From Rhodothermales bacterium (GTDB lineage Bacteria; Bacteroidota; Rhodothermia; Rhodothermales; Bin80): a DNA stretch of 51,616 bases. The notes beneath the pieces were generated by a model that saw nothing but the letters and a program-made list of their open reading frames with translations, made no database searches and was not told the DNA's origin. This document shows positions 13,271 through 50,174 of the stretch, one piece after another; within the stretch, counting starts at the first letter, position 1, and the number at the start of each line of letters is the position of its first letter. The stretch lies in the NCBI GenBank assembly GCA_022821385.1, contig JAJEDR010000016.1:1-51616 (forward strand). Direction: 5' to 3'. The position numbers were made by a program, and so were the translations under genes.

Positions 13271-16240
13271 TCACGCTTGCTTCAGGCGGTGGAGTGCTTT
13301 TTGGTTCTGTCCATGGACGGAGGGTTCATTGCACCAGAGCCAGCGCAATGTGTCTATGATTGCGGGAGCAGCCTCGTTGGCCAAGTTAAGCATCTCGAGA
13401 ACCGCGTGATCAATTTGATTTCGCACTTCATCTGCGTGGGCCTGACAAGCAGGAAGCAGAGGTTCCTTGGACAGACGGTCAAATACAACTGCGGCCTGTT
13501 CTAACTGACGTGCCGAGATCTGATCAAGCCTTGGACAGGGGATACTAGCCAATGCTTTTACCTGCGTCGTTGACCGCCCGCTCTGTGTTCGTTGGCCCTG
13601 TGTCCAGTGAACCAGGAAACCAAACGTAGAATTGGCCCACAGGGCAAAAGCCTTGAGCACATGCGGATCATCGTGCTGCAGTGAAGTCCATGCTCGTCCA
13701 CCCATGCCAAGATGGGTTGTTACGGCTGCTAGGAGTGTCTGAGAGGTCCAGCGCATATTTCGCGCATAGAACAGTGTACTGCGAGATGCACGCATCGCTT
13801 CCCGCTTCGCCTCCGAACCTATGCCAGGAGGAGACATCCCCTTATGGGTCAGCGGTACAAGAAGTTGCTTCTGTGTACTGCTGTCGGCTCGCCAGAGTGC
13901 ACGATCGGATCCTATGGCATCCACCGAATTGAACACCGGCACGAATTCAAAAGCACCACGCGGGTCTCTACCGGGCAAATGTCCTATCAAATCATGTGTT
14001 GGACCAACCTCGAAAAGTTCTCCAATAGAGCACATTGGCACATCAAGGGGGATGACATGACCATTAAAGTGGAGGACGCCTTCAAGGAGCGTATTTGCTG
14101 CTGCTACAAGGTCGGCATGTAAAACTCCCAGCGGGTTCCAGGGAGCGCCGTCTCCCCTCGTGGTGAACGCACACATCTGCCCTATCTCATCATTTCCTAC
14201 CCGGACCGCGTAGCTGCCCCCGGACTCCTGGGCTTTTCTGAGCGTAGAACGGATTGAACGGGCGACCTCACCGGCCTCTCCCGCCCGTAAAACAGGAGCC
14301 CGTAATGTCACACAGTGCACCGCTGCCGAAGGTGGCGTATCCGCATGATGATTCGCCGTACGTTTCGTTCCTACAAATAACATCTCCTCCATCCCCGTGT
14401 CAGCGGATAGCGCCCGCCGTCCCAAAGCCTTGCCGCTCGCCACTGCGATAACCACAATATCGGTGAACTCCCGCGTGATCATTTGCCGCGTCACTGCCCA
14501 CGATTCCGCAAACGCCGCAGACAGCGGCAGCACAAACCCAATCCGGCCGCCTGGTTTACATTTTTGGTGCGCCAGCACAAGAAAGGATGCCGCCAATCCC
14601 GCCTGATTGTTCACCGGCGCGTCCCGAACCAAAAGCTTCCAGCGCCGCTGGCATGCCGTGCGTTCAGCACGCGATAACCCCGCAATGTCAAATACACTCT
14701 GACCACCCCGTGTTCGCGAATACGGAGGATTCATCAGAATCCAATCCATCGAAATATCCGGTACACTGACCGAGTTCTCTTCACCATTGCCGTTACCCAT
14801 AGACCTGCCCGCACCTACGTTGAACAGATCCACCACCTGCTGCGCAGCAAAATATTCCAGCGATCCTGTCTGACCTTTCTCCCCGCCAACATTTACCCAG
14901 CCAATCTGGGTGTCTCCATACGGATCCCCATATCCCAATGCCGCCAGTGAGGAGGTCGTCAAATGGGCTGCAATCGGGCTTACATCGGCCCCGATCAAAC
15001 CGCCTTCCATCGCCGCCGCGTGTAGATGCCGCAGACTCTCCATGCTCCCGCCGGTCTGCTCGTGAATAGTGGCCACACGGTGGTACCCTGCACGCAGAAG
15101 TGTACCGGTTCCGCAGGCCAGATCACTCAGATACCGCTTCCTGAAAAGGTCTGGATCCGCCCACTCCTCCGCGGTTAGCATTGAAGGATCAATCGTCAGA
15201 TTCGCCAGCAGTTCGGCAGTGGCTGACTGGGTGTAGAACGCGGCGGCCGTTTTTCGATCCTCACTCAGCTTAGGAAACAGCTCCGCACCAATATTGATGT
15301 GAAGTCCCAACTGAGCGGTCTCAATCTCCATAACCGCTTCAATCAGCTTCCTGAGCATCCGGGAGGTACCCCCGGGATCAAACTTGCTTGCCAACTCAAA
15401 GACTTCAATCGCCGGCTCAAAAACAGAATTCCAGTTGTGTCGGTTAATGGTCCGCCAGACTTCAATCTGTGCAAGCACATTAGGTGCAGAACGTCCTGTA
15501 AAATCTATGAAAGGTGCACCCACAACACCCTGTGCGGCAAGTCGCTGCTGCGTTAAAAGGGCATTCAACCACAACACGACTGTGGTTCGTAAACCCTTTA
15601 GCGGTGAGCGTTGGTGCAGATGACCAGCAATCTGCTGCTGTCCTCCGTCTGGTAGCGTCGCTTCAAGTCCATTGGCCGCTGCTTCCACCAGCAGCGCCAC
15701 ACGGTCTCCGACAGATCTTACCTCCTCACGCGGCAGTCCCGCCGCAGACAGAAGTGTCGCAAGATCAAACACGTTACCCGTAATAAACCCGTCCTGCGGC
15801 CACCTCCGCTCATGGGTGCCTGTAATAGTGGTCTGGCCTCTACTCTCCAATAGCTGATGAACTGCATACGCAAGCGGTGCCCCCTCCAACAGCATATCCG
15901 CAATATTGAACCCATGCGCCTTGCGGAAACGCTGCGGAATATACAATGCAATAGCGGTGCCGATCCTGGCGCGGCGCATTCGGGTCTCAAGCCCCAGTCT
16001 TGCAACGGCATCCCGGTCCGCATCCAAGGCTCCAAATGAACTCTCTATCACGACCGGCGGGAAAATCCCGTCATCAATCAAAATGTCGGGACGCAGTCCA
16101 GAACCCTTGTCGGTATGCAGGAGCCGGGTCTCTTCGACTTTGATGCATTCCGGCTTCGCTGACCAACGAGCGCAGGCCTTTCGAAGCGCACGGCCAAGTG
16201 CCTGGTTGAAGGTTTCCTCTATGGTATGCCCATTTCCCAT
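13271..16240 (-). CDS. Solitary N6-adenine DNA methyltransferase with nuclease-like N-terminus
   Basis: A 989-residue class I methyltransferase that should transfer a methyl group from S-adenosylmethionine to adenine. Residues 333-348 (AAFYTQSATAELLANL) match the helical segment before the catalytic domain in type I/IIG enzymes. Motif I is DLACGTGTLL (373-382) and catalytic motif IV is NPPYSR (504-509). Both are intact, so it is probably active. Residues 51-70 (PDILIDDG...VVIESSFG) resemble the core of a PD-(D/E)XK nuclease, but the expected lysine after the Glu is Ser. The C-terminal third (SIGELFEVGPTHDLIG onward) likely serves target recognition. No helicase, specificity subunit or separate nuclease adjoins, so it appears to be an orphan or degenerate type IIG enzyme. 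A defence role cannot be claimed from context. Confidence 0.86.
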   Translation of the reverse strand: MGNGHTIEETFNQALGRALRKACARWSAKPECIKVEETRLLHTDKGSGLRPDILIDDGIFPPVVIESSFGALDADRDAVARLGLETRMRRARIGTAIALYIPQRFRKAHGFNIADMLLEGAPLAYAVHQLLESRGQTTITGTHERRWPQDGFITGNVFDLATLLSAAGLPREEVRSVGDRVALLVEAAANGLEATLPDGGQQQIAGHLHQRSPLKGLRTTVVLWLNALLTQQRLAAQGVVGAPFIDFTGRSAPNVLAQIEVWRTINRHNWNSVFEPAIEVFELASKFDPGGTSRMLRKLIEAVMEIETAQLGLHINIGAELFPKLSEDRKTAAAFYTQSATAELLANLTIDPSMLTAEEWADPDLFRKRYLSDLACGTGTLLRAGYHRVATIHEQTGGSMESLRHLHAAAMEGGLIGADVSPIAAHLTTSSLAALGYGDPYGDTQIGWVNVGGEKGQTGSLEYFAAQQVVDLFNVGAGRSMGNGNGEENSVSVPDISMDWILMNPPYSRTRGGQSVFDIAGLSRAERTACQRRWKLLVRDAPVNNQAGLAASFLVLAHQKCKPGGRIGFVLPLSAAFAESWAVTRQMITREFTDIVVIAVASGKALGRRALSADTGMEEMLFVGTKRTANHHADTPPSAAVHCVTLRAPVLRAGEAGEVARSIRSTLRKAQESGGSYAVRVGNDEIGQMCAFTTRGDGAPWNPLGVLHADLVAAANTLLEGVLHFNGHVIPLDVPMCSIGELFEVGPTHDLIGHLPGRDPRGAFEFVPVFNSVDAIGSDRALWRADSSTQKQLLVPLTHKGMSPPGIGSEAKREAMRASRSTLFYARNMRWTSQTLLAAVTTHLGMGGRAWTSLQHDDPHVLKAFALWANSTFGFLVHWTQGQRTQSGRSTTQVKALASIPCPRLDQISARQLEQAAVVFDRLSKEPLLPACQAHADEVRNQIDHAVLEMLNLANEAAPAIIDTLRWLWCNEPSVHGQNQKALHRLKQA

Positions 16241-20960: not shown

Positions 20961-21986
20961 ATGTCGCATCAATCTGAAACATCCAATAATATTCTGCGCG
21001 TCGGTATTGATCTGGGAACTTCACGAAGTGCCATTGCTGCTGATAATGGCAAGCGCAAGTGGATTCACAGCTATGTCGGCTGGCCCCGTGATTTTATCGC
21101 ACGCAAGTTGCTCAAGCGTGATGTGCTCGTTGGAACGGATGCCATTGAGCATCGGAATTCAGTCAACTTGGTTCGCCCTTTGGAGCACGGTGTAATCAGG
21201 GACGGAACAGCCAAAGACGAAAAGGCTGTTCGTGAACTGATTCGGCATTTGATATCGCTAGCAGAACCAGAGGATGGGCAGAAAATTTATGCTGCCGTTG
21301 GCGTGCCGGCAGAGGCTCTGCGGGTCAATAAGCTCGCAATACGCAATGCTGTGGGTGAATGGGCGGACACTCTGATGCTGGTATCGGAACCGTTTGCGGT
21401 GGCATATAGACTCGGTGCGCTCAATAACGCCTGTATCGTTGACATTGGCGCAGGTACGATTGATTTCTGTGTCATGCATGGCACGATGCCGAGTGATGAG
21501 GATCAGCGCTCAATGCGCGCCGCGGGGGATCATATAGATCAGCAGCTTTACGACCTGTTGTCGGAGCGCTTCGTCAACACACCTATAAGTGAGACTATGG
21601 TGCGTGAATTGAAGGAGAAGCACGCCTCTGTTTCTGGTGCAAGTGAACCCGTAAGGGTCAAACTGCCGATTGCCGGCAAATTTCAGTTACATGACATCAC
21701 CAAAGAGATTTGCCGGGCCTGTGATTCTTTGATACCGGGTATTGCAGAGACCATCATTGATCTACTGAGTACGTACGAACCGATGCTCCAGGAGCGGATC
21801 CGGAACAGTATCTATTTAGCAGGCGGTGGAAGCCAAATTCGTGGCATAACTGAAGCCCTCGCTACTGCCCTGGAGGAGTATGGGCATTTCACGATCACAC
21901 CCATTGAAGATCCGCTGTTCAGTGGTGCCGAAGGGGCCCTGAGTCTGGCGGAAGACATGCCTGAAGAATATTGGGAAAACATGTAA
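20961..21986 (+). CDS. MamK-like actin-family ATPase
   Basis: A 341-residue actin/Hsp70-fold protein that should polymerise with ATP. Phosphate-1 loop is VGIDLGTSRSAIAAD (about residues 14-28), phosphate-2 is IVDIGAGTIDFCVMHGT, and the adenosine motif is YLAGGGSQIRGI. Several segments match MamK, the magnetosome filament protein, better than MreB as I recall these families: VGWPRDFIARKLL, VRPLEHGVI, LVSEPFAVAYRLGALNN, MPSDEDQRSMRAAGDHID and the C-terminal GALSLAEDMPEEYWENM. MreB's membrane-binding N-terminal helix is not evident. No magnetosome genes are in the window. It lies directly after the amidase and 11 bases before folA. It could organise cell shape, division or an intracellular compartment. 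Confidence 0.88.
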   Translation: MSHQSETSNNILRVGIDLGTSRSAIAADNGKRKWIHSYVGWPRDFIARKLLKRDVLVGTDAIEHRNSVNLVRPLEHGVIRDGTAKDEKAVRELIRHLISLAEPEDGQKIYAAVGVPAEALRVNKLAIRNAVGEWADTLMLVSEPFAVAYRLGALNNACIVDIGAGTIDFCVMHGTMPSDEDQRSMRAAGDHIDQQLYDLLSERFVNTPISETMVRELKEKHASVSGASEPVRVKLPIAGKFQLHDITKEICRACDSLIPGIAETIIDLLSTYEPMLQERIRNSIYLAGGGSQIRGITEALATALEEYGHFTITPIEDPLFSGAEGALSLAEDMPEEYWENM

Positions 21987-23804: not shown

Positions 23805-24422
23805 ATGTCCCGATCTGTATTTGTTTTTGTCTTAGGTATGCTCGTTGCTCCTACCGCGATTTCCCAGACCTTTGGTATTAGCGCCGGGGCGAATTTCCAG
23901 CGATTGAATGAAATCAGACTCAATGAACTGGAAACTAAATTTTCAAGCCAAAACGGCTGGCATGTAGGGTTGTGGGCAGAAGTCCCGCTGGGCCCGGCAG
24001 CAGCTTTGCGCGGCGGCGGCCGGTATATGGCAGCCGGGCAGCTATTCGATGGTTTGGAGACCAATTTCCCATCGATACGCGAAAAGTTTGAGGTTTCACT
24101 GGTTGAGCTGTTCCTGTTGCTGCGAATAGGCTTTCCTTCTCAAGTAGTGAGTCCTTACGTATTTGCCGGTCCGGTATTTAGGATCCCAGTCAACACTGAC
24201 CACCAACTCGGCAACGATCTATCACCTCTTTCTTACGCGGGAGAGATCGGAGGTGGTCTCGTTATCAATCTGGGGCCGATAAGCCTGTACCCTGAAGTCG
24301 CTTATGTCTTTGGGCTGACCCGCTTCATTGAAGACGAGTTGGTACTAGAGTTTATCTCCCTAACTGTTGGTGATACACAGCGGCTAAATACGGCAATGTT
24401 ACGTCTGTCGGTTGGACTATAG
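23805..24422 (+). CDS. Outer-membrane beta-barrel protein
   Basis: A 205-residue protein with signal peptide MSRSVFVFVLGMLVAPTAISQ, then alternating amphipathic strands typical of the small 8-stranded porin-like barrels of Bacteroidota (GISAGANFQRL, WHVGLWAEVPLG, AALRGGGRYMAAG, SLVELFLLLRIGF, VSPYVFAGPVFRI, IGGGLVINLGPISLYPEVAYVFGLT). It ends in a strand, MLRLSVGL. The barrel-type proteins may be structural or transport small solutes; nothing more specific is visible. It is divergent from bshA, sharing an 80-base spacer. Confidence 0.85.
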   Translation: MSRSVFVFVLGMLVAPTAISQTFGISAGANFQRLNEIRLNELETKFSSQNGWHVGLWAEVPLGPAAALRGGGRYMAAGQLFDGLETNFPSIREKFEVSLVELFLLLRIGFPSQVVSPYVFAGPVFRIPVNTDHQLGNDLSPLSYAGEIGGGLVINLGPISLYPEVAYVFGLTRFIEDELVLEFISLTVGDTQRLNTAMLRLSVGL

Positions 24423-25044: not shown

Positions 25045-25902
25045 TTATGCAGTCTCTTTCTTGCGGTTAGCCTTCAGAGAGATATTCGACTCATCCTTCC
25101 ATTCTCTGAGTCCGTTGGCGCTCCGACCGAGGCAGACAGACGCTGCAGCCGATGCTGAGCCAAAGACCCAGTCCTTTGTAAAGCGATAACCATCGTCTGT
25201 CTCCCGCAATGTCTCATCATCGATGAGTTCTAGCCGCTGACGATAGTAGCTGGGCGCTCGTGCTTCGAAAGATGCTACCGGCTCTGCACGCGCAAGCGAT
25301 TTCTGCAGGACCTTGAAACCCGTATTCACTTCGAGGCCTTTCGCGCTACAGCCGAGTCCTTCCAAAAAGTATACCTTATCTGAATCGGGTGTCTCGTCGG
25401 GTTCGAAATACGTTACACCGAGGACAGGAAGGAGGGACAGCAACTCATCCAAGAAACCCTCGATTTCGGCTTCGTCGGCCTCGGAAAGCCGCGGAAGGAG
25501 TGATGCGCTGCTGTTTTCCAGCTTCGATCGCCCATGTTTCTTCGCCAATTCCAACAAACGGGCCTCGAGGTATTTGACCTGCGCCTTGTTCAGAGGCGGT
25601 TCCTTCGCGGTAAAGATGATTGCCTGCTGCCAGAAGTCCTTGTACGCATAGTGCCAGTTGAGGCGTTTCCTGACATGTTCTGCTTCGCCCACATACAGTC
25701 TGGGTAACCGGTCGCCATCCTGGCCGACCAACAGGTAAACACCACTGCGAGAAAACTCGGGTCGCCCCTTCACCTGTGCGTACCTCCCTCGTGGACACAC
25801 GATACCTTGGCCGATCCAGTTTGACTTCTCGACCAGACGCAGTCCCTCCGGAAGCCCTTCGGCCACGAAGATCTGAATCTTAAAGGGGCGCTGTCCAGTC
25901 AT
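25045..25902 (-). CDS. GIY-YIG nuclease-domain protein with DUF4357
   Basis: A 285-residue protein. Residues about 43-110 form a GIY-YIG domain: SGVYLLVGQDG then PRLYVGEAEHVRKRLNWH, giving the GVY and YVG strands and the conserved Arg, followed by a late Glu (KYLEARLLELA). The C-terminus is DUF4357: YRFTKDWVFGSASAAASVCLGRSANGLREWKD. This two-domain architecture is known among putative DNA-modification or mobile-element-linked proteins of unknown role. The start ATG at 25902 is set by GGAAGGGAGA just upstream, one of the few clear Shine-Dalgarno sequences in the window. This and the GC-rich codons suggest a different origin from its neighbours. Confidence 0.9.
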   Translation of the reverse strand: MTGQRPFKIQIFVAEGLPEGLRLVEKSNWIGQGIVCPRGRYAQVKGRPEFSRSGVYLLVGQDGDRLPRLYVGEAEHVRKRLNWHYAYKDFWQQAIIFTAKEPPLNKAQVKYLEARLLELAKKHGRSKLENSSASLLPRLSEADEAEIEGFLDELLSLLPVLGVTYFEPDETPDSDKVYFLEGLGCSAKGLEVNTGFKVLQKSLARAEPVASFEARAPSYYRQRLELIDDETLRETDDGYRFTKDWVFGSASAAASVCLGRSANGLREWKDESNISLKANRKKETA

Positions 25903-25915
25903 TCTCCCTTCCTCA
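25892..25915 (-). promoter_or_regulatory. Strong ribosome-binding site of GIY-YIG gene
   Basis: On the minus strand GAGGAAGGGAGA stands immediately before the ATG at 25902. This decides the start over an upstream ATG at 25953 that adds 17 residues. Most other genes in the window lack such a site. Confidence 0.6.
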
Positions 25916-26342
25916 CCCCGCGGTACGGGTGGGGCGTCCTGCAGGCATCGCATGGCCAGCGGAACCGGTCAGAATTGTTGGAGCCTGTTGCAAAATCCTT
26001 TATTCTCATCTGTTGCCCCGCTAATTTCCGGCTTAACCTGGTTAAATATAGTCGGGTTACGCGACTCATCGGCATGGGTTCGCCGTTTCTTGTGTCGACA
26101 GATGCTTTGTCTCTAGTGAGATCTCTGATTAGTGAATTTCGTCCGCGATCCGCACAGATTTCACGCACCCATTCCACGGCTTCTGTGGTTCACCCGTCCG
26201 AATTCTCGTTTGATAAACAAAGTTTCACACACCTTCTCGGTTCCGTTGAATGGACGGACGCCGGGTTGACCCACGTAGGCTGCCGCCATGAAGAATGCCT
26301 TCCACAAGGCCGGGTCTGCGTCGTCTGTATTTCATACGCAAG
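25903..26342. other. Gap between GIY-YIG gene and propeller array
   Basis: About 440 bases. Overlapping open frames of 90-120 codons on both strands have no recognisable features. From about 26255 to the end it resembles the 3' flanks of the other two array copies (see the repeat entry). Confidence 0.4.
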
Positions 26343-27560
26343 CTAAGAAGGCAACGTGAGGCGATGTATCTGGACGGTTTGGACCCCAAGTTCGGACTCG
26401 TGAAGCAGGAGCACATAGTCAGCTCCGAATTCCTGAACATAACTAGGGGTCTGGGCCATGTGACAAAAGAAATTGCCGTCCGCACCGAAGGCTAGCCATC
26501 CACGATCTTCCCGGGGCCGGTCGTATTGGCGGACCCAGATGCGGCCGTCACGACCGATCCTGACACTGGACATAACTGGGAAAACGTCAGCAACCGGACG
26601 TTCTCGGCTAAGCATGTACCGAGCAGGGCTACGGAGCGTCCGGTAATCCTCGCGCCAGGCACGTATGTCGGCACGCGTAACCTCACGGTTCGGTTCTGGC
26701 CATCGGATGGTCATCTGTAAGTTGAATTCATCGTCTAGAACCTGTATCTCGGGTTTGCTTCCATGTGCCAGCACGATGGTTGATCCCAGCGCGTCAACTT
26801 CGGCGTTTGCTTCAAAGAGCGGGTACAAATAGAGGTTCTCGGGGGCTTCACTGACCGTGCCATAGGTTATGTGGGGAATCTGGGCGAGGTGGCCGACAAG
26901 TTTCCCGTCGGGATTGTGGATTTCCACCACCATCGTGTGTGGAACGTCAAAGCCCGGGGTGTACATCCCTACCTCTCTGGCGTTCACGGTGTACCCGTTT
27001 TCGAGCACGCCCCCAGCCCTTGAACGGTTTTGGTACACCGGATCAAGCAGGATCCTCCGCACGAATTGGCCTTGGGCCGTGAATACAGTGTAGCTCCAAG
27101 GCCGGTAATTTCCCACCCAAAGCGTGTCACCTGCCGTAATCCACAGGGAAGTGGGATTGGTGAACTCACCGGGGCCTTCGCCGCGTTGGCCCATTGATCG
27201 CAGGTGACGCCCTGACGCGTCGAAAACACGAACTTCATAAAGGTCGTTATCAACCACCGCTATGGATCCATCTGACAGACGTCCCGCTCCCCAGATATAA
27301 GAGAACCATTGGTTGTCGTCTTCCTCGTCATCACCGATGACCAAGACGGGTTCTTCACTGAATGTGCATGTCGCCTCCGAACTTGCGGGGATGCTGGTTA
27401 CGATCTGCGCGTTGGAGCTGTCAATGGTCAGGGGTTCAGATAGTGCTTGCCGGGAGCTGTTAACATTCCAGGTTTCGGATGGTGCTTTTTGGGAGCAGGC
27501 ACCGAGGGACAAGGCAAGTGCGACCACAAGGCTTTGTAGACACTGATTAAGTGTAATCAT
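26343..27560 (-). CDS. Beta-propeller lipoprotein, array copy A
   Basis: First (leftmost) of three tandem paralogues, 405 residues. Lipoprotein signal MITLNQCLQSLVVALALSLGAC with lipobox LGAC (Cys22), so membrane-anchored outside the cytoplasm. The propeller begins GRLSDGSIAVVD, EVRVFDASGRHLRSMGQRGEGPGEFTNP, then GDTLWVGN and VFTAQGQFVRRIL, all blade strands of the six-bladed (NHL-like) type. A very conserved stretch near residues 320-365 (ERPVADVFP, GRDGRIWVRQYDRPREDRGW) is shared with copies B and C. Start ATG at 27560 is chosen because it gives the lipoprotein signal; the frame is open for 27 more codons upstream. Copy A lacks the SSSDW insert of B and C near residue 315. Substrate unknown. 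Confidence 0.88.
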   Translation of the reverse strand: MITLNQCLQSLVVALALSLGACSQKAPSETWNVNSSRQALSEPLTIDSSNAQIVTSIPASSEATCTFSEEPVLVIGDDEEDDNQWFSYIWGAGRLSDGSIAVVDNDLYEVRVFDASGRHLRSMGQRGEGPGEFTNPTSLWITAGDTLWVGNYRPWSYTVFTAQGQFVRRILLDPVYQNRSRAGGVLENGYTVNAREVGMYTPGFDVPHTMVVEIHNPDGKLVGHLAQIPHITYGTVSEAPENLYLYPLFEANAEVDALGSTIVLAHGSKPEIQVLDDEFNLQMTIRWPEPNREVTRADIRAWREDYRTLRSPARYMLSRERPVADVFPVMSSVRIGRDGRIWVRQYDRPREDRGWLAFGADGNFFCHMAQTPSYVQEFGADYVLLLHESELGVQTVQIHRLTLPS

Positions 27561-27600
27561 TCTCGCTATCTCGTGTTGGACGAGGATACGGGGGTGTCTG

Positions 27601-27630
27601 ACGACCGCCGAGTGTACAGTCGGTGGTCGT
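27601..27630. repeat. Inverted repeat in leader of array copy A
   Basis: ACGACCGCCGA (27601-27611) and TCGGTGGTCGT (27620-27630) pair at 10 of 11 positions around an 8-base loop. It lies 41 bases upstream of the copy A start. Copy B keeps only the first arm, so the hairpin is not conserved. Confidence 0.6.
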
Positions 27631-27654
27631 ATAAGATTCACCGTGGAAAGTTTA

Positions 27655-27742
27655 CCTGCATTGAAGCGGACTGAACCACAGCGCAGATCTGGTTGACAAA
27701 TAGCAGACTACGCCGCCCTAGTAGGATATGTCTGCAAAATGT
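27655..27742. repeat. Leader repeat, copy A
   Basis: Segment upstream of array copy A starting CCTGCATTGAAGCGG and running to TCTGCAAAATGT. It matches 29621-29709 and, more weakly, 33513-33603. Confidence 0.65.
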
Positions 27743-28310
27743 CGCATGTTTTGTGGTGTGCGACACGTGTGTGCGGAACTGCGTTTTCCAAACGAATTGT
27801 CATCGGACGGTTCAAGTCTATCAGCTGTGGCACATCTATCAGGATAGAAAAACTTTGATTTGCCGAGAGAAACAGGGTCCGTCATGAAAGAAGTAGCTAA
27901 TCCCGATGTTATTGCCATCTGCGGAAAAGATTTCAATCGTCGCCGTAAAATGTTTTCAAGATGCAGTTTTCACGCCAACAAACAAAGCTAGGCTTTGATT
28001 GCATTGCTGGATAAGTTACCATTAAGTACTTATGGACTAATTGAGGAACCACCGTTAGAGCAAAGGCGCAAGATTCGCATGGGGCGTGTGCATGAGATAG
28101 AGACCTGATCTCATAAACACTCCGTGAGTCTGCTGCCTTGGAAAGGACTAAACGAGCGTCTGCAACCAACCGCGCTTCGGCATCTGTGGAGACGCCCCTC
28201 TACTTCTCCGTCCTGCTACATAGAAGATGGGAGCTGACCCACGCAGGTTGCTGCTACGAAGAATACCTTAGACAAGGCTGGGTCCGCAATGTCTGTACTT
28301 CATACGCAGG

Positions 28311-29525
28311 CTAAGAAGGTAACGTGAGACGATGCATCCGGACGGTTTGGACCCCAAGTTCGGACCGATGAAGCAGGAGCACATAGTCGGCTCCGAATTC
28401 CCAAACGCTGCCGGGGGTCTGGGCCATGTGACAAAAGAACTTGCCTTCAGCATCGAAGGCGAGCCATCCACGATCTTCCCGGGGCCGGTCGTATTGGCGA
28501 ACCCAGATGCGGCCGTCACGACCAATCTTAACACTGGACATGGCCGGGAAAACGTCGGCCACTGGCCGTTCCGGGCTAATCCTGTCATCATCATTCTGAT
28601 CCCAGTCCGAAGAACTATAGCGCTCCCGGTAATCCTCGCGATAGGCACGTACGTCCTCGCGCGTAACCTCGCGGTCCGCTTCTGACCAGCGGACGATCAT
28701 TCGCAAGTTGAATTCATCGTCCAGAACCTGTACCTCGGGTTTGCTCCCGTGTGCCAGCACGATGGTTGAACCCAGCGCGTCAACTACGGCTCTTGCTTCG
28801 AAGAGTGGGGAAAAAGCAATGGACTCGGGGGAATCACTGACCTTGCCAAAGGTTCTGTGGGGAATCCGGGCAAGGATGTTGGCAAGTTTCCCGTCGGGAT
28901 TGTGGATCTCCACTATCGCCGTGTCAGGAACGTCAAATTCCGGGGTAAGGATTCCTAACCCTTCCCATCTGACGTTCACGGTGTACTCGTTTTCGAGCAC
29001 GCCTCCAGCTCTTGACGGGTCCGAATACACCGGATCGAGCCTGATCCTTCGAACGAATTGGCCTTGGGATGTGAATACAGTGTAGCTCCAAGGTCGGGTG
29101 TTTCCCACCCAAAGCGTGTCTCCTGCCGTGATCCACAGAATAAAGGGATCAGTGAACTCGCCGGGACCTTCGCCGCGCTGGCCCATCGATCGTAGGTGAC
29201 GCCCCGACGCATCGAATATGCGAACCTCAGCAGACGTGCGATCAACCACCGCAATGGATCCATCCGAAAGACGTCCCGTTCCCCGGATAGAAGTGAAAAA
29301 TTGGTTGTCGTCTTCCTCGTCATCGCCGACGACAAAAGCGGGTTCCTCACTGAATGTACATGTCGCTTCCGAACTTGCGGGGGTGCTGGTTACGATCTGC
29401 GCGCTGGAACTGTCGATGGAGATGTCGGCGGCCCCAGGGTCAACTGATGCTTGCTGGGAGCATGCACCGAGGAGCAAGGCAAGTGCGACCACAAGGCTTC
29501 CAAGGCGCTGTTTGGGTGTAATCAT
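28311..29525 (-). CDS. Beta-propeller lipoprotein, array copy B
   Basis: Second paralogue, 404 residues, signal MITPKQRLGSLVVALALLLGAC (Cys22) then SQQ. The protein is the closest match to copies A and C: GRLSDGSIAVVDRTSAEVRIFD, RSMGQRGEGPGEFTDPFILW, GDTLWVGNTRPW and the late GRDGRIWVRQYDRPREDRGW block. It differs from A by an insert (SSSDWDQNDDDRISPE) that C also has. Codons are like those of its siblings, so these are recent duplicates. It is separated from A by 750 bases and from the phosphoesterase by 863 bases, both mostly repeat flank. Possibly these lipoproteins vary in what they bind; nothing shows the ligand. Confidence 0.88.
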   Translation of the reverse strand: MITPKQRLGSLVVALALLLGACSQQASVDPGAADISIDSSSAQIVTSTPASSEATCTFSEEPAFVVGDDEEDDNQFFTSIRGTGRLSDGSIAVVDRTSAEVRIFDASGRHLRSMGQRGEGPGEFTDPFILWITAGDTLWVGNTRPWSYTVFTSQGQFVRRIRLDPVYSDPSRAGGVLENEYTVNVRWEGLGILTPEFDVPDTAIVEIHNPDGKLANILARIPHRTFGKVSDSPESIAFSPLFEARAVVDALGSTIVLAHGSKPEVQVLDDEFNLRMIVRWSEADREVTREDVRAYREDYRERYSSSDWDQNDDDRISPERPVADVFPAMSSVKIGRDGRIWVRQYDRPREDRGWLAFDAEGKFFCHMAQTPGSVWEFGADYVLLLHRSELGVQTVRMHRLTLPS

Positions 29526-30388
29526 TTTCGTTACCTCGTGCTGGACGGGGATTTGCGGAGCATCTGACGACCACCGAATGTACGGTCAAAGGAGGTCAAA
29601 GGTCCACCTTGGTAAGCTCACCTGCATTGAAGCGGCCAGAGGCACAGCACAGATCTGGTTGACCGATAGCAGGCTACGACGGCTCTGTTAAGATAAGTCT
29701 ACAAAATGTGCAACATTTTGCAGTATGCGACACGTGCGCGCCAAACTTCATTTTCCGAATGACTTGTCGCTAGACAGATTATGCAATTGGCATTTATTCA
29801 TGGCCTATTGGCTAATCGTGGGAGATGCGTTTCACGTAACATTTCAAGTTTAATAGCCATGGCACAACTATCAGCACAGAAAAACCTGATTTGCCGAGAG
29901 AACAGTTTCCATCGTGAAAGGACTAGCCAGTCCAAACTTCAGGGAATTATAACGCAAACTGAATGCTGCATATTTGTGACCAAATTCCTACACTTTATGT
30001 GTCCCGTTCGGGATAGTGGTCGGGCAATAACCAAGCCTGAAAGTACGCGGGGGCTACGTGGGCTTGGTCCTGCTTCGGCAGGTCCGCAACGGGTGCTGAA
30101 ACATTAATGACAACCATGCTGGTTACAGTTTGGCAGGAATTCCCTTAATTTGGCATGTATCATTTCGATCACAACCGGAAATTCGGCCTTGTTCGCAATT
30201 CCATATCATTATGACTTCTGGGCTCAGTTCGAAGAGAATTTGACGCCTGAGTGAGCAGACTAAGCAAGGCAACTTCAATGGAAGCTGCTATTCATGGACG
30301 ACCGTACCTTGAGCTAATAGAGAATGTCCTCACCGGGAGCACGACGGTCATGCGTTCCGAAAACATCAAAGGCTATTGAATCAGGGAG
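29526..30388. other. Non-coding spacer between copy B and phosphoesterase gene
   Basis: 863 bases. The copy B leader runs from 29526 to about 29938, ending near GATTTGCCGAGAGAA, a string also present near 27858 in copy A. From 29940 to 30388 no gene or repeat is recognised. It should include the promoters of the two divergent genes. Confidence 0.5.
29621..29709. repeat. Leader repeat, copy B
   Basis: Counterpart of 27655-27742 upstream of array copy B; begins CCTGCATTGAAGCGG and includes GATCTGGTTGAC. The order and spacing to the start codon (95 bases) equal those of copy A. Confidence 0.65.
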
Positions 30389-31333
30389 ATGGTACTACTA
30401 CAGATATCACGTCGTGAACTGCTGAAGATTGGTACAGCGTGCCTTTTTCTTCGTCCGGGTCGTAGTGCAGCCCAGACCGAATCCGTTTGTCTTGGTGTGA
30501 TAGCAGACCTGCATCATGGATTAGCACCACGGGCGATGGAGCGATTGGAAACGTTCATGCGAGCCGTCGCCGAGCGCAAACCAGATGCCATTCTCCAGTT
30601 GGGGGATTTCAATTTTGGCACTACAGAGAGTGAGGAATGCCTGGACCTCTGGAATTCGTTTGTAGGCCCGGGGTATCACGTACTCGGTAACCATGACATG
30701 GACTTTGTGTCCAAGGATGCTATTGTTCGAAAGTGGGGCATGCCAGGTCGCTACTACTCCTTTGATTTTGGTCCCTACCATGTGGTAGTTCTTGACCGAA
30801 ACAATCTGAAGGCGGATGAAGGTTATACGCCCTACGGCGAAGCTAATTTCTATGTGGATGCCTCTCTGCGCGGCTACGCCGATGACGCTCAGCTTGTTTG
30901 GCTCCGTGATGACCTCGCCAAATCATCTCTTCCAGTAGTGGTTTTCGCACACCAAGGCCTCGGTCTTCCAACCTCCATGCCTGAGGCTAGCAGCGCCATT
31001 GAAGCCGTACTGGAAGAGCACAACAGTAGTGGGGCCGATAGTAAGGTAGTGGCCTGCTTTTGCGGTCATCACCATATTGATCGGCACACGCGCAAGAATG
31101 GCATCCATTATCTGTGGATAAACAGTGCTTCATATTATTGGGTTGGGGCAGAATACGGGAGCATGGCACCATACACGCATGCGCTGTATACGTTTATCAC
31201 TTTCCGTTCCGATGGACTCATGGAAATAGAGGCTAGCCACGCTGACTGGGTAGCTCCCTCTCCCGCTGATCGTGGCTTCCCCGGGGCGAGTGAATTGACG
31301 CCGTTCATTTCCGCCCGGCGCTTGGAGTACTGA
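30389..31333 (+). CDS. Exported calcineurin-like metallophosphoesterase
   Basis: A 314-residue hydrolase with a Tat-type leader SRRELLKIG (residues 7-15), then a hydrophobic stretch and an AQTES cleavage region, so probably exported folded. Metal-binding motifs are in order: VIADLHHG (DxH), LQLGDFNF (GD), HVLGNHDMDF (GNHD), VVVFAHQGLG and CGHHHID (GHxH). All ligands expected for a two-metal phosphoesterase are present. Length and the extra C-terminal strand (WINSASYYWVGAEYG) suit extracellular phosphodiesterase or phosphatase relatives. It is on the opposite strand between propeller copies B and C. CAGGGAG just before the ATG may act as a ribosome site. Confidence 0.9.
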   Translation: MVLLQISRRELLKIGTACLFLRPGRSAAQTESVCLGVIADLHHGLAPRAMERLETFMRAVAERKPDAILQLGDFNFGTTESEECLDLWNSFVGPGYHVLGNHDMDFVSKDAIVRKWGMPGRYYSFDFGPYHVVVLDRNNLKADEGYTPYGEANFYVDASLRGYADDAQLVWLRDDLAKSSLPVVVFAHQGLGLPTSMPEASSAIEAVLEEHNSSGADSKVVACFCGHHHIDRHTRKNGIHYLWINSASYYWVGAEYGSMAPYTHALYTFITFRSDGLMEIEASHADWVAPSPADRGFPGASELTPFISARRLEY

Positions 31334-31972
31334 GCTCTGGCGATCACTGCGGATCATCTAAATCGTGCGTGTGGGTGATGCGCGCATTCTGGTGGCGGTT
31401 ACTGTTTTGAGTCTCAGTTGTGCGCGATCAACACAAGAGCATCCAAACACGCAGTAAGAGCCGCCAGCCTAAGCTGTAGGATCAGCGTGGAGTTGGCTTC
31501 ATGTAGCTCGCCTTAGGCTAATGCAGGTATGCGTGTCCAGCGCCAACGAGAATTTTAGTTTTTCAGGTGATCCATTAAGTGCGTGAGAGCATCAAGATGA
31601 TTCACTAACATCCCTCAAACTGGTTCATCGTTCAGCGGGTAATGCTGTTTTTCAATTTGACGGACGAATAAAATGAAGATCAAGTCGGCCGCCGCGAAGG
31701 CGGGAATTAGCGATCCGGCTGCTCATAGAAAACTCCGTCTCGCCAAGGTTCCGAGCGAGCTGACGACGGACTGCTGAGAAAGACTGTACGCGGGAGCAAT
31801 ACGCCGGACTCAAACGGGAAATATGACGAGATGACAGCCTGATCTCATTAACATTCCCCAAAGGTCCGCGGTCCTGTCGCGTAGAAAGATGCCAACTAAC
31901 TCACGCAGGTTGCTGCCAGGGAGAATACCGTCGACAAGGCTCGGTTTGCATCTTCGGTACTTCATACGCGGG
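31334..31972. other. Spacer between phosphoesterase and copy C
   Basis: 640 bases with no firm gene. A 30-codon frame from GTG at 31365 encodes a short hydrophobic start ending in LSLSCARST then stops at 31457. The right part, about 31840-31972, matches copy B's 3' flank, including CCTGATCTCAT and CTCACGCAGGTTGCTGC. Confidence 0.45.
31365..31457 (+). pseudogene. Possible truncated exported-protein start
   Basis: Thirty codons from GTG: VRVGDARILVAVTVLSLSC then ARSTQEHPNTQ and a stop. It looks like a signal peptide cut short soon after the cysteine, perhaps the remains of a secreted protein gene downstream of the phosphoesterase. The lipobox is imperfect and chance is quite possible. Confidence 0.2.
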
Positions 31973-33166
31973 CTAAGAAGGTGACGTGAGACGATGCATC
32001 CGAACGGTTTCAACTCCAAGTTCGGACTCGTGAAGCAGGAGCACATAGTCGGCTCCAAATTCCCAAACATCGCCGGGGGGCTGGGCCATGTGACAAAAGA
32101 ATTTGCCGTCAGCACCGAAGGCGAGCCATCCACGATCTTCCCGGGGCCGGTCGTATTGGCGGACCCAGATGCGGCCGTCACGACCAACCTTGACACTGGA
32201 CATAGCTGGGAAAGCGTCGGCCACAGGACGCTCTGGGCTAATCATGGCGTCGTCATACTGATTCCAGTCCGAAGAACTATGGCGCTCCCGGTAATCCTCG
32301 TGCCAGGCGCGTATGTCCGCACGCGTAACCTCGCGGTTTGGATCTGACCAGCGGATGATCATTTGTAAGTTGGATTCATCGTCCAGAACCTGTACCTCAG
32401 GTTTGCTACCGTGTGCCAGCACAATGGTTGACCCCAGCGCGTCAACTTCGGCGCCTGCTTCAAAGAGCGGGTAGAACCCGACCCCGGGAGCTTCACTGAC
32501 GTGTCCATAGGTTAGGTGGGGAATCCGGGCGATGTTGCCGATAAACTTCCCATCGGAATCGTGGATCTCTACTATCATCGTGTCTGGAACGTCAAAGTCA
32601 GGGGTGCGCATTCCTACCTGTCTGGCGTTCACAGTGTACCCGTTTTCAAGCACGCCTCCAGCGCTTGACGTTCTCGAATACACCGGATCTAGCACGATCC
32701 TTCGCACGAATTGGCCTTGGGCCGTGAATACAGTGTAGCTCCAAACCCCGGTGTTTCCCACCCAAAGCGTGTCGCCTGCCGCGATCCACAGGATAAAGGG
32801 ATCGGTGAATTCACCGGGGCCTTCGCCGCGCTGGCCCATTGATCGTAGGTGACGCCCCGAAGCGTCGAAAATGCGAACTTCAGCAGACGTGCGATCAACC
32901 ACCGCGATGGATCCATCTGACAGACGCCCTATCCCCCGGATCCAAGAGAACCATTGGCTGTCATCTTCCTCGTCACCGCCGATGACCAAGAGGGGTTCTT
33001 CACTGAGTATGCACGTCGCCTCCGAATGTGCGGGGGTACTGGTTACGATCTGAGCGCCGGAACCATCGGTGGCCTCGGTTTCGGATGGTGCTTGCTGGGA
33101 GCAGGCCCCAAGGAGCAAGACAAGCGCGACCATAAGGCTTCCTAGATACTGATCGGGTGTGGCCAT
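31973..33166 (-). CDS. Beta-propeller lipoprotein, array copy C
   Basis: Third paralogue, 397 residues, signal MATPDQYLGSLMVALVLLLGAC (Cys22). It keeps all shared segments: GRLSDGSIAVVDRTSAEVRIFD, QRGEGPGEFTDPFILW, GDTLWVGNTGVW, VFTAQGQFVRRIVLDPVY and GRDGRIWVRQYDRPREDRGW, and the SSSDW insert of copy B. The short linker after Cys22 is about seven residues shorter than in B. It is the right end of the array. Its immediate leader matches copies A and B for about 60 bases, after which some 250 foreign bases push the rest of the leader repeat away. Confidence 0.88.
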   Translation of the reverse strand: MATPDQYLGSLMVALVLLLGACSQQAPSETEATDGSGAQIVTSTPAHSEATCILSEEPLLVIGGDEEDDSQWFSWIRGIGRLSDGSIAVVDRTSAEVRIFDASGRHLRSMGQRGEGPGEFTDPFILWIAAGDTLWVGNTGVWSYTVFTAQGQFVRRIVLDPVYSRTSSAGGVLENGYTVNARQVGMRTPDFDVPDTMIVEIHDSDGKFIGNIARIPHLTYGHVSEAPGVGFYPLFEAGAEVDALGSTIVLAHGSKPEVQVLDDESNLQMIIRWSDPNREVTRADIRAWHEDYRERHSSSDWNQYDDAMISPERPVADAFPAMSSVKVGRDGRIWVRQYDRPREDRGWLAFGADGKFFCHMAQPPGDVWEFGADYVLLLHESELGVETVRMHRLTSPS

Positions 33167-33629
33167 TTTTGCAATCTCGTGCTGGATGCGGGATTTGAGG
33201 GGCCAGATTCACAAACCGTACATATTAGTCTTAATCGGTAGCAGATATGGCCATTGCTTACACTACATAGCCCGACGGCATTTCCAGCCCGTAAGTTAAG
33301 TGGTGGATCCACAGCGTGCCTTGCGATGGATCCTTGCGGATTCCGGTGGCCGGGGGGCGCGTGGGCGACAATTCGGCTCCACCCTGTGAAAATCCGCATT
33401 TTAGAAAGGCAATTCGGCCTTCATATCCCTTAAGACATTAGTGCCCAACCAAGGGGAAGCTCACAAACGAGTAAGGTAACTGAACAGACGCTTTTTCACT
33501 CGTCTAGCATATCCGCATTGAAGCAGCCCGATGCACAGCACAAAGGTAGCCAACCCAGAGCAGGCTACGACTCCATCGCATCTCGCAGATAAGTCGGATA
33601 CTGCTGACTTCTGGAAGCCAGCAGAGCCC
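33167..33629. other. Expanded leader of array copy C
   Basis: 463 bases without a gene. Starts with the array leader, then about 250 bases not found in A or B, then the leader repeat from 33513. The inserted part contains ACGAGT near 33467 and ACTCGT near 33498, a 6-base inverted repeat. Confidence 0.5.
33513..33603. repeat. Leader repeat, copy C (displaced)
   Basis: Begins CCGCATTGAAGCAGCC and includes CAGGCTACGAC and GATAAGTCGGA, matching the leader repeats at 27655 and 29621. It lies about 345 bases from the copy C start rather than 95. Confidence 0.5.
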
Positions 33630-34301
33630 CTACGGTATGCCAGAGTAAAAGCGGAATCGCCCCTCGTCCAATTGGAAATCACGTGCGGGGGTTATAGGAG
33701 TCCAATCCCTGGCCCACTCAGGAAGTACCTCGGGGTCCATCAGGGATTGTTCGCTGTAAAAATGGAGAACCGCACGAGGGAACGGACGCAACTGATCATC
33801 AGCATGCCGGATGTGATAGGCCAGCGCTAAGGTTTTTTTCCAACCAGGAATCCTTAATGAACTGGGACTCAAATCCAGGCCGATGTAGTAGCTCGACGTA
33901 GGGTAGCTTTCAATGAAGGCACTGAATTGAAATGGATCCAGAACACAACTCCTGTACGAATTGCACCCGCGATGCTCAGATTCAACTCGGTTCCGCACTA
34001 CCCAACCAACTAGTTCCTGCTCGTCATGCCTCTTGCTCTCCGAAAACATTGCCCGAGCCAACCACAAGGTTCCTTCGTCAATATTCCCGGTATGGACAGG
34101 CCTAATGCCCCAAGGATTCAAAAGCGCGGCACGTGTTTCCTCATACGAAGGTGTAGCGAACGGTGAAGGTGACTCACCGGAAACACAAACATTTCCACTT
34201 GAAGGCGGTGCAAGGACAGTCCTCCCAGGCAGCAAGAATGCCGCTAGAAGCACCAACAACGAGCACCAGCCAATAGCCTTTCTCGCGATATACATGTTCA
34301 T
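33630..34301 (-). CDS. Exported cell-wall hydrolase-like protein
   Basis: A 223-residue protein with an N-terminal hydrophobic signal or anchor (WCSLLVLLAAFLLPG). The region LWLARAMFSESKRHDEQELVGWVVRNRVES resembles the opening of SleB/CwlJ-type hydrolases (LARxxYxEAR...VAxVVxNRV), and CVLDPFQFSAF recalls their VVxxxxQFSxF motif. The Glu in FSES is the probable catalytic acid of that family. The pair of motifs supports peptidoglycan cleavage; direct evidence is absent. The 5' end has two Met codons two residues apart. It is convergent to the array and divergent from pdxB, 95 bases away. Confidence 0.68.
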   Translation of the reverse strand: MNMYIARKAIGWCSLLVLLAAFLLPGRTVLAPPSSGNVCVSGESPSPFATPSYEETRAALLNPWGIRPVHTGNIDEGTLWLARAMFSESKRHDEQELVGWVVRNRVESEHRGCNSYRSCVLDPFQFSAFIESYPTSSYYIGLDLSPSSLRIPGWKKTLALAYHIRHADDQLRPFPRAVLHFYSEQSLMDPEVLPEWARDWTPITPARDFQLDEGRFRFYSGIP

Positions 34302-37847: not shown

Positions 37848-39485
37848 ATGTTTCGTCGCACAGGTTCCTTATTGTTGCTTCTGCCCGTCTGGACTCTGGT
37901 CCAGATAGCCAGTTCCGTTGCACAGGCGCCAGATGTATGGTATCCCTCTACGTACGAACCAGGAACATCAATCAATCTGTTTGCCAGTTGGAACGGTGTG
38001 TCGGCTGATGAGGGATTCGTGGTCTCACTGCCATCTGAGTGGGGACTAAATGCTGCAACCGGGGTACGTCAGGCTCATCGCCATGTGACCCTTGATGTGG
38101 TGAGCCTTCCTAACGGCCAATTCCTTTTGCTACCCTCAGAACCACTCCGCAGAACTTACGATATTATTCTGCAGGTAGAGACCAGTAAGGATGACACGTT
38201 CTGGAATTCCAGGTTCTCAATAGCCCCCGCGGTGAAGATGGGCTCAACCTATGTGCCCGACGAAGGCCATATTCGCCGGGGCGAGCTGCGCTCCAAATCC
38301 GACGCCAGTCTCGGGTATGCATTGGCCTTCGAAAAGGATTTCAATGCTCTTCATGTCCAGTCGCAGTCACTCGAAATTTTGCTGGGCAGCCATACACTCG
38401 AGTTCTGGATCCGTACGACTGTGCTGGATGCCGTAATTCTATCTACCTGGAATGGGGCAACCGGCATTCCCTATCCGATAGAGGTCATGATTGACCCCCA
38501 GGGACGCATAAGGTATTACCGCAACACGATTGGACATCACGTCACACTGGCCACCGAAATTCCCGTGGCTGACGGTACCTGGCACCACGTTGCCCTGGTT
38601 CATGATGCCGAAACAGATTGGACGCAACTTTATGTGGATGGTGCGGTGGCTGACTCCTTGCTGGATCCGGCCGATATCCATTTAAGTGATACATATCCTC
38701 TTGCTCTGGGTGGACGCGTTGGTGAGCAGGAGATTGAATTCGTTGGTGAGCTTGACGAACTGCGTGTGTGGCCCGCGGCTCGAACTGCGCAGCAGATACA
38801 CGCTACGATGCAACAGGAGTCCCCCCAAGGGAGTGCACTTGCACTTGATTTTGAATCCAGAGAAAGCTTTGGGGCATTTAGAGAGGGAAATGCAATTCGG
38901 TATCGTGTTCCAGGCGGGCCCTCATTTGGTCCACTTGTTCACAGCTTTCGCGGAATTGCCTTTGATGAGGGAGTAACACTTACCTGGAAAGATGAGGATC
39001 CGGCCTCGGAGGCGTTTCTGATTGAGCGCTCGGAAGATGGTCTAGGATTCGAAAGACTCACACGCATTGAATATTCGTCCCTGAACACTCCTTGGTCCTA
39101 CACAGATCTCGAGCCTCCTAGCCGTGTGGTGTTCTATCGCCTAGTTCAAGAGACTCAAAACCGGCCTCCGCGAATAGTGGGAACGATCAAACTTGGTCTG
39201 GCCCCCCAAAGCGAGCCGCCTCCAGCTGAAATTGTGGGGAATTATCCGAACCCATTCAATCCTCGTACTTCAATTACCTATGAGGTTCGGGAATCTCAAC
39301 ATCTGCGACTTTCCATAATTGACCTTTCTGGGCATTTGGTCGCGGTACTGGTTGACAGGCAGCACGAGCCTGGTACGTTTGAATCAAGCTGGGATGCCAA
39401 CGAATGGCCGAGTGGTACGTATTTTGTGCGCCTCCAGGGGCTGAACGGGACCGTCCAGACACGACAAATCCTGCTTACCAAATAA
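37848..39485 (+). CDS. Type IX-secreted protein with LamG-like domain
   Basis: A 545-residue surface or extracellular protein. Signal peptide MFRRTGSLLLLLPVWTLVQIASSVAQ. Central LamG/concanavalin-like fold, about residues 180-325: HTLEFWIRTTV, DGTWHHVALVHDAETDW and LYVDGAVADSLL, then the closing strand GELDELRVW. A fibronectin-like segment follows (GVTLTWKDEDPASEAFLIERSEDG). The last 80 residues are a canonical Por secretion sorting domain: NYPNPFNPRTSITYEV, LRLSIIDLSGHLVAVLVD, WPSGTYFVRLQ and a Lys end. The start at 37848 gives the signal peptide; the frame is open 35 codons further up. Its end is two bases before the next gene. Confidence 0.92.
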   Translation: MFRRTGSLLLLLPVWTLVQIASSVAQAPDVWYPSTYEPGTSINLFASWNGVSADEGFVVSLPSEWGLNAATGVRQAHRHVTLDVVSLPNGQFLLLPSEPLRRTYDIILQVETSKDDTFWNSRFSIAPAVKMGSTYVPDEGHIRRGELRSKSDASLGYALAFEKDFNALHVQSQSLEILLGSHTLEFWIRTTVLDAVILSTWNGATGIPYPIEVMIDPQGRIRYYRNTIGHHVTLATEIPVADGTWHHVALVHDAETDWTQLYVDGAVADSLLDPADIHLSDTYPLALGGRVGEQEIEFVGELDELRVWPAARTAQQIHATMQQESPQGSALALDFESRESFGAFREGNAIRYRVPGGPSFGPLVHSFRGIAFDEGVTLTWKDEDPASEAFLIERSEDGLGFERLTRIEYSSLNTPWSYTDLEPPSRVVFYRLVQETQNRPPRIVGTIKLGLAPQSEPPPAEIVGNYPNPFNPRTSITYEVRESQHLRLSIIDLSGHLVAVLVDRQHEPGTFESSWDANEWPSGTYFVRLQGLNGTVQTRQILLTK

Positions 39486-49711: not shown

Positions 49712-50174
49712 GTTTCTGAGGGGATAATGCATCGGTGACTACCGTTATTGTCTAGTGTTTGCCCGAGAATTAAATATAGGTCAGTTTAATGTGTTTCAGG
49801 AGGGGTTTCAGTGGGATTTTAGCGGTGCCCTGCGTTGTTTGTTGCGCATATCCGACCTGCCTTGTGTAAGTGGGTCAAGTTTCAGCAGGATTTCAGTTGT
49901 ACCCTGGGTTGCTCGGCCAGTTTTCGATGTCCTGGGGACCCCGTTAACCATATTAGACTCGGGGCTTGATTCAGCGAATTTTGGGGCGTATCGGGTCGAT
50001 TAGGCGTAATTTAATATTTAGATGAAATGGAAACCAATGCATAGGTTAGGAATTCTGGTTGGTCCGCCCCCGACATCATGTCGTGAAGAGGAGAGCGATG
50101 CGCGTATTCGTTTTCTGCTCAAACTGCGCCACTGTGCAGAAAAAGCTCCCCGCCTCCGAGAATGGCGACCAATA
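49712..50174. other. Intergenic region with imperfect direct repeat
   Basis: 463 bases between two divergent genes. An open frame continues upstream of the 50175 start to 50022 but carries no signal or motif. A 37-base unit occurs twice (49804-49840 and 49878-49914), agreeing at 27 positions, including GTTTCAG and CCCTG. No promoter box could be assigned. Confidence 0.5.
49804..49914. repeat. Imperfect direct repeat, two units
   Basis: Two 37-base units at 49804-49840 and 49878-49914, about 73% identical, 74 bases apart. They share GTTTCAG, GGATTT and CCCTGxGTTG. Confidence 0.4.

What the first reader, a model, noticed from the sequence alone, without database searches (positions are those of the whole stretch)
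26255..33610. Three-copy tandem array of propeller lipoproteins with duplicated flanks
Copies A, B and C share not only coding sequence but also leaders and 3' flanks, so whole units duplicated. Copies B and C carry an insert (SSSDW...) absent from A. Surface lipoprotein arrays like this often diversify for ligand choice or immune evasion; what this one binds is unknown.
Basis: partly seen in the sequence, partly recalled or inferred. Interest (0 to 1): 0.6.

Follow-up and report, generated by a model that had tools for sequence, protein, structure and literature searches.

The report
Diversifying array of propeller lipoproteins
Three neighbouring copies of a gene for a lipid-anchored, six-bladed propeller protein in a relative of marine-sponge bacteria have diverged mainly on one face of the propeller, which suggests, without proof, that the copies bind different partners.

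Summary
The observation largely holds. Genes A (26343-27560), B (28311-29525) and C (31973-33166), all minus strand, are paralogues (76-79% protein, 79-83% DNA identity) sharing 3' flanks and parts of their leaders. They are not strictly tandem: a metallophosphatase gene separates B and C. The "insert" is wrongly polarised: the segment is ancestral (14 of 16 homologues); A and its bin80 orthologue lost it. The host genus is a Rhodothermaceae MAG lineage that includes bin80 from the sponge Aplysina aerophoba. At this locus 4 of 10 genus genomes carry copies, 3 are empty, 1 holds unrelated sequence, 2 are undecided. The proteins are six-bladed NHL-like propellers (Pfam DUF5128) with a lipobox but no known Bacteroidota surface-export motif, so surface exposure is unproven. 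Copies evolve at omega 0.36-0.44, with about 5% of codons at omega about 5 (2dlnL 45.9; null simulations with recombination reach 15.3). Variable residues concentrate on the D-A/B-C loop face (odds ratio 2.9; control sets 1.3-1.5). Unexpectedly, the leaders carry remnants of an IS110-family element's long 3' end. Best reading: paralogous outer-membrane lipoproteins diversifying a ligand-binding face; ligand unknown. New member of a known kind.

The parts
26343..27560 (-). Copy A, 405-aa DUF5128 six-bladed propeller lipoprotein (ATG start; an in-frame GTG at 27641 would lengthen it)
   Evidence: orthologue in bin80 88%
28311..29525 (-). Copy B, 404-aa propeller lipoprotein
   Evidence: fold model
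31973..33166 (-). Copy C, 397-aa propeller lipoprotein
   Evidence: fold model
26267..26342 (-). Shared 3' flank of A
28210..28310 (-). Shared 3' flank of B
31871..31972 (-). Shared 3' flank of C
27650..27796 (-). Leader of A: outer tip of an IS110-family element's long 3' non-coding end
29624..29760 (-). Leader of B: the same IS-end tip
33300..33571 (-). Leader of C: inner (transposase-proximal) about 270 nt of an IS110-family 3' end; shares a 57-nt core with the tip in B's leader
27811..27903 (-). Outer leader block shared by A and B, beyond the IS tip
29843..29933 (-). Outer leader block of B, homologous to 27811-27903
26206..26238 (+). 34-column match to the IS-end tip downstream of A, inverted relative to A's leader
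30389..31333 (+). Metallophosphoesterase gene between B and C; on other contigs in the relatives searched, so relocated or acquired here
25045..25953 (-). DUF4357 protein with a weak GIY-YIG match, inside the variable locus
   Evidence: not found in the corresponding bin80 locus
23805..24422 (+). Conserved left border of the variable locus: small outer-membrane barrel protein
33630..34301 (-). Conserved right border of the variable locus: putative cell-wall hydrolase (Pfam match below cut-off)

Best explanation
A, B and C are lipid-anchored six-bladed NHL-like propellers at a variable locus between two conserved genes. They arose by duplication of a whole unit (gene plus 3' flank plus a leader that already held a dead IS110-family end) around the time this small clade of species formed, and are gained, lost and probably recombined. 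The tethered propeller most likely sits in the outer membrane and binds a partner on the face made by its D-A and B-C loops; the copies are kept because that face has diverged, giving binding proteins of different specificity. Shown: fold class by model, duplication, locus variability, site-specific positive selection, face bias, IS end in the leaders. Inferred: membrane side, that the variable face is the binding face, that ligands differ. Unknown: the ligand.
For: Pfam DUF5128 above cut-off for all three; models of B and C give six blades closed by an N-terminal strand, best structural match Brat NHL, Z 20.4 over 262 residues. dN/dS between copies 0.36-0.44, with dN about three times that of the neighbouring genes at similar dS. 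M2a over M1a 2dlnL 45.9 and M8 over M8a 48.0; 27.7 after dropping columns within 3 of a gap; 36 null simulations with 1, 4 or 12 segments on differently labelled trees reached at most 15.3. All 9 propeller sites with posterior above 0.9 lie on one face in both models (hypergeometric p 0.017); residues varying among A/B/C: 78 of 214 on that face against 20 of 121 on the other (odds ratio 2.9, p 0.0001), control sets 1.3-1.5, not significant. Indels between the copies inside the propeller fall in the same class of loops (alignment read).
Against: No ligand, expression or localisation data. No Bacteroidota-type export motif after the cysteine. Models have modest confidence (mean pLDDT 62 and 67, from six similar sequences), and the variable loops are their least certain parts. 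The face bias of the selected sites loses significance after gap trimming (5 of 5, p 0.105) or on a star tree (7 of 8, p 0.15). One orthologue pair (53 vs 84a) also shows a bias (odds ratio 2.2, p 0.019), so the bias is not special to duplicates. Recombination among copies (PHI p 0.0005, but 0.052 on third positions) violates the single-tree assumption. Most codons are under purifying or near-neutral constraint.
Confidence: 0.5

Rival explanations
1. Birth-and-death of a relaxed, partly redundant gene family: copies are amplified and decay at a recombination-prone locus, and loop divergence is mostly relaxed constraint without new binding functions.
For: M1a puts 38% of codons at omega 1; a second copy in G008 is frameshifted; the locus is empty in 3 of 10 genomes; 35 DUF5128 matches in the genome imply redundancy.
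Against: A class with omega about 5 is needed and survives gap trimming and recombinant-null simulations; A, B and C are all intact; overall dN/dS is well below 1.
Confidence: 0.27
2. Surface antigens diversifying to escape phages, protists or the sponge's recognition, rather than to choose ligands.
For: One-sided positive selection and recombination between copies fit antigen variation; a congeneric genome comes from a sponge.
Against: No surface-export motif seen; no phase-variation repeats, invertase or silent cassettes noticed in the locus (reading; no dedicated search); divergence is between species and copies, with no strain data.
Confidence: 0.13
3. Periplasmic scaffold or assembly-factor lipoproteins, each serving a different outer-membrane partner; the varying face follows partner proteins.
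For: Lipobox without an export motif; the borders are a barrel protein and a putative cell-wall hydrolase.
Against: The borders are present in all 10 genomes, including those whose locus is empty, so they do not need the copies.
Confidence: 0.1

Closest known systems
Pfam PF17170 (DUF5128, 6-bladed beta-propeller)
   Same: All three copies pass the family cut-off (27-28 bits against 22.9); NHL-type six-bladed fold in models.
   Different: Only 41-47 residues match the profile; no paper naming the family was found in the library held (one search for 'DUF5128', 0 papers).
NHL-domain propellers (Brat, TRIM2/3/71, Thin)
   Same: Best fold matches, Z 17-20; sequence similarity of the first blades down to E 3e-14.
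   Different: Eukaryotic and intracellular, some binding RNA (recalled and entry titles); here bacterial, exported and lipidated, 15-19% identity.
BtuG surface lipoproteins (vitamin B12 capture, Bacteroides)
   Same: Propeller tethered by an N-terminal lipid; binds its ligand on one face (passages of PMC10404256; BT1954 among Foldseek hits).
   Different: BtuG is seven-bladed and pairs with BtuB; here six blades, and no TonB-dependent transporter was recognised among the window ORFs read or scanned.
Bacteroides exported propellers 4RAA (BF0058) and 3S9J (DUF4221)
   Same: Z 17-18 over about 300 residues.
   Different: 9% identity; the entry titles give no function.
IS110 family, IS1111-like organisation (for the leader element)
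   Same: Transposases with PF01548 and PF02371 next to the element; short left, long (about 345 nt) right non-coding end, as described for IS1111 (PMC11208160 passages).
   Different: In the array only end fragments remain; no transposase remnant was found.

Membership tests
PF17170 DUF5128 | Score above the curated cut-off | tested here: met
   28.1, 27.4, 27.1 bits against 22.9
PF17170 DUF5128 | Match over most of the 321-position profile | tested here: not met
   Best stretch covers profile positions 52-98 at most; short matches are usual for this model in the genus, so I take the name as a fold-level label
Six-bladed NHL-like propeller | Six blades with N-terminal strand closure | tested here: met
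   DSSP of both models, modest pLDDT; structural matches
Bacterial lipoprotein | Signal peptide with lipobox cysteine | tested here: met
   LGAC at residues 19-22 in A, B and C (sequence; lipobox pattern recalled, no predictor run)
Bacteroidota surface lipoprotein (LES type) | Acidic export motif at +2 to +6 (K-(D/E)2, SDDDD, SDDFE) | tested here: not met
   CSQKAPSET, CSQQASVDP, CSQQAPSET against passages of PMC5080379; motif unproven for Rhodothermota
Bacteroidota surface lipoprotein (LES type) | Exposure on intact cells | not testable with these tools
   Needs labelling or protease shaving
BtuG-like capture lipoprotein | Seven-bladed propeller | tested here: not met
   Six blades in both models; BtuG2 seven
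BtuG-like capture lipoprotein | Linked TonB-dependent transporter | tested here: inconclusive
   None recognised in window ORFs; not every ORF was scanned by HMM
Positively selected paralogue family | Codon class with omega above 1 beyond a recombinant null | tested here: met
   2dlnL 45.9 / 27.7 against null maximum 15.3 in 36 simulations
Phase- or antigenically variable array | Strain-level variation or switching machinery | not tested
   One genome per species held; no strain data
IS110/IS1111 end (leaders) | Same sequence abuts a DEDD/Transposase_20 gene elsewhere | tested here: met
   L080, L083 (own genome, contig C95), L085; partial gene in L082
IS110/IS1111 end (leaders) | Bridge RNA structure in that end | tested here: inconclusive
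   Consensus fold -40.3 kcal/mol but unfavourable covariation term +3.32; 6 of 68 pairs with two-sided changes in 7 sequences

The most novel reading that the evidence does not exclude
An IS110-family element with its bridge-RNA-type end landed upstream of one propeller gene; its ends then served as the repeated handle, by RNA-guided or homologous recombination, for amplifying the gene into an array whose copies became a repertoire of differently specific binding proteins in sponge symbionts.
Probability: 0.1. Interest if true: 0.65.

Novelty: new member of a known kind. Interest (0 to 1): 0.4.

Why it matters
Propeller lipoproteins of the DUF5128 kind are abundant in this genus (7-49 matches per genome in the 10 searched), and no paper naming the family was found in the library held here. 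A small set of closely related scaffolds with mapped, one-sided, positively selected positions turns 'what do they bind' into a direct experiment: express three paralogues and compare ligands, then test the listed positions. The IS-end fossil is a marker of how such arrays grow.

Tried and rejected
Assembly artefact: rejected, because the copies are about 20% diverged and A has an orthologue with the same private deletion and N-terminal insertion in bin80.

B/C-specific insertion: rejected by outgroups.

Simple triplication within this species: rejected; A and bin80's copy 67a group with 100/100 support, so A split from B and C before the two species did.

Known RNA in the leaders: Rfam gave only a chance-level snoRNA match (21.6 bits against gathering 64).

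Transposase remnants near the copies: none by tblastn with three IS110 proteins on the window and three of four other array loci; only chance-level hits (E 0.6-0.75) in the fourth, the C115 locus.

Bridge-RNA structure of the IS end: no covariation support.

Papers on propeller lipoproteins of this kind or on diversifying propellers in symbionts: searches listed nothing that I recognised as this family (listings only, papers not read).

Weak or contrary results are kept in the report: gap-trimmed and star-tree face tests not significant, third-position PHI 0.052, 10-site A/B/C mosaic permutation p 0.10.
Full report
WHAT IS THERE. The window lies on contig C42 of a 3.39-Mb MAG. [quoted passage not shown] abstract start, passages and table row seen). 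Three minus-strand ORFs, A, B and C, share 76-79% protein identity and 79-83% DNA identity over 1.3-1.5 kb, including 70-100 bp beyond the stop codons; A and B also share about 235 bp of leader and a 93-bp outer block, whereas C shares only a short stretch and a 57-bp core. A metallophosphoesterase gene on the other strand lies between B and C.

PRIVATE INDELS. In an alignment of 16 homologues the SSSDW segment is present in 14 and missing only in A and in bin80's copy 67a, which also share an N-terminal insertion of about 9 residues. The segment is therefore ancestral and A's lineage lost it. A and 67a form a clade with 100/100 support; B and C group weakly (84/83 in the protein tree).

THE LOCUS. 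The border genes (an outer-membrane barrel protein and a putative cell-wall hydrolase) are present in 10 of 10 genus genomes. Between them the window has 9.2 kb with a DUF4357 protein, A, B, the phosphoesterase and C. Bin80 has 8.4 kb with two array copies and three further ORFs whose DUF5128 matches are all below the cut-off. G004 and G008 have copies next to the hydrolase, with the contig ending in or near a second copy; G008's second copy is frameshifted. G001, G002 and G007 have less than 300 bp between the borders; G006 has 3.4 kb without a match to the copies; in G003 and G005 the borders lie on separate contigs with no copy in the flanks held. Tally: copies 4 of 10, empty 3, unrelated 1, undecided 2. 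Of 59 relatives searched, 18 had any match at E 1e-10, many of them only to other members of the large propeller family; full-length copies above 70% identity were listed only in G004, G008 and G009.

AGE AND RATE. Between copies dS is 0.33-0.39 and dN 0.13-0.16. For 10-12 neighbouring genes the combined values against G009, G004 and G008 are dS 0.45, 0.40, 0.38 and dN 0.053, 0.047, 0.043. Duplications are thus about as old as the four-species clade, while amino-acid change is about three times faster than next door. The A/67a pair has dS 0.23, lower than each of the 11 neighbouring genes measured against G009 (0.38-0.58), with low values in the middle of the gene; exchange between species after their split is one reading (inference). 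PHI over the 8 close copies gives p 0.0005, but 0.052 on third positions only; the A/B/C mosaic test gives p 0.10 to 0.003 depending on window size.

SELECTION. A codon-model likelihood written here, on the 8 close full-length copies, gave M0 omega 0.46; M2a beats M1a by 2dlnL 45.9 with about 5% of codons at omega about 5, and M8 beats M8a by 48.0. After dropping columns within three of a gap the value is 27.7, with a star tree 40.7, and in the two halves 16.4 and 25.7. As recombination can inflate this test, I simulated 36 neutral data sets (12 each with 1, 4 and 12 segments, tree labels permuted between segments): the largest 2dlnL was 15.3. The implementation is my own and was checked only against these simulations.

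FOLD AND FACE. Models of B (pLDDT 62, pTM 0.64) and C (67, 0.68) both show six blades closed by an N-terminal strand. Best matches are NHL domains (Brat, Z 20.4 over 262 residues) and Bacteroides exported propellers. Residues varying among A, B and C: 78 of 214 against 20 of 121 (odds ratio 2.9, p 0.0001); without low-confidence loops 47 of 145 against 20 of 121 (p 0.003). Control sets: 97a/97b 1.34 and the four-gene outgroup 1.50, both not significant; orthologues A/67a 1.26, not significant; orthologues 53/84a 2.2, p 0.019. The bias is thus stronger in this clade than in the other sets tested, but it is not confined to duplicates.

THE LEADERS. C's leader matched dispersed places outside the array in five of the ten genus genomes searched (G000, G009, G005, G003, G001; a sixth, G008, matched only in the stretch next to the hydrolase gene). 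Next to several of them lies an IS110-family transposase gene (PF01548 and PF02371; L080, L083 in the window's own genome, L085; partial in L082). The repeated sequence is the roughly 345-nt non-coding stretch after the transposase stop codon; the other end is short. That layout is the one described for IS1111-group elements, which appear to encode the bridge RNA in the long right end (PMC11208160 passages). The leaders of A, B, 67a, 53, the second G004 copy and 84a hold the outer roughly 145 nt and stop at the same outer boundary as the mobile copies; beyond it they resemble each other but not the mobile copies. So the IS end was upstream of an ancestral copy and was duplicated with it. Copies 67b, 115 and the frameshifted G008 copy lack it; 67b and 115 branch before the others in the tree. 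C retains the inner 270 nt. A 34-column match to the tip, inverted, lies just downstream of A. No transposase remains there. Whether the end gives a promoter, an RNA or only homology for duplication is open; the RNA fold had no covariation support.

MECHANISM. Lipobox signal peptides and about 40 low-confidence residues before the propeller suggest a lipid-tethered, exported propeller. Canonical Bacteroidota export motifs are absent after the cysteine (sequence, with PMC5080379 passages), though I found no such motif established for Rhodothermota. BtuG is a precedent for a lipid-anchored propeller capturing a ligand on one face (PMC10404256 passages), but it has seven blades and a partner transporter, so these proteins may work like it without belonging to it. 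I put 0.5 on ligand-face diversification, 0.27 on relaxed birth-and-death, 0.13 on antigen escape and 0.1 on periplasmic partner roles.

Noticed in passing
window 33300-33571; L077-L087: Dispersed IS110-family (IS1111-like) long right ends, several without an adjacent transposase gene in the stretch held (for example L077, L087), hinting at solo or non-autonomous copies carrying a bridge-RNA-type region.
   Followed up: partly
window 20961-21983 (+): Actin-like protein scoring 393 bits against the MamK (magnetosome actin) NCBIfam model, just under its cut-off of 400; found at this conserved locus in several genus genomes.
   Followed up: no
window 30389-31333 (+): Metallophosphoesterase is 92% identical to the copy in G007 although seven neighbouring genes are 62-84% identical: a likely transfer or relocation into the array.
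   Followed up: partly
window 13271-16240 (-): 989-aa protein with an NPPY motif, resembling a restriction-modification methylase by eye, but without Pfam or NCBIfam matches at the thresholds used.
   Followed up: no
window 37848-39485 (+): Laminin-G lectin domain protein with a type IX secretion C-terminal sorting domain.
   Followed up: no
window 696-1727 and 50022-51296: Two more DUF5128-like propellers in the same window (the first below the family cut-off); G000 has 35 such matches in all.
   Followed up: partly
L041 11546-13876: bin80's locus also holds a tandem pair of a second propeller-like subfamily, resembling by eye the window gene at 696-1727.
   Followed up: no
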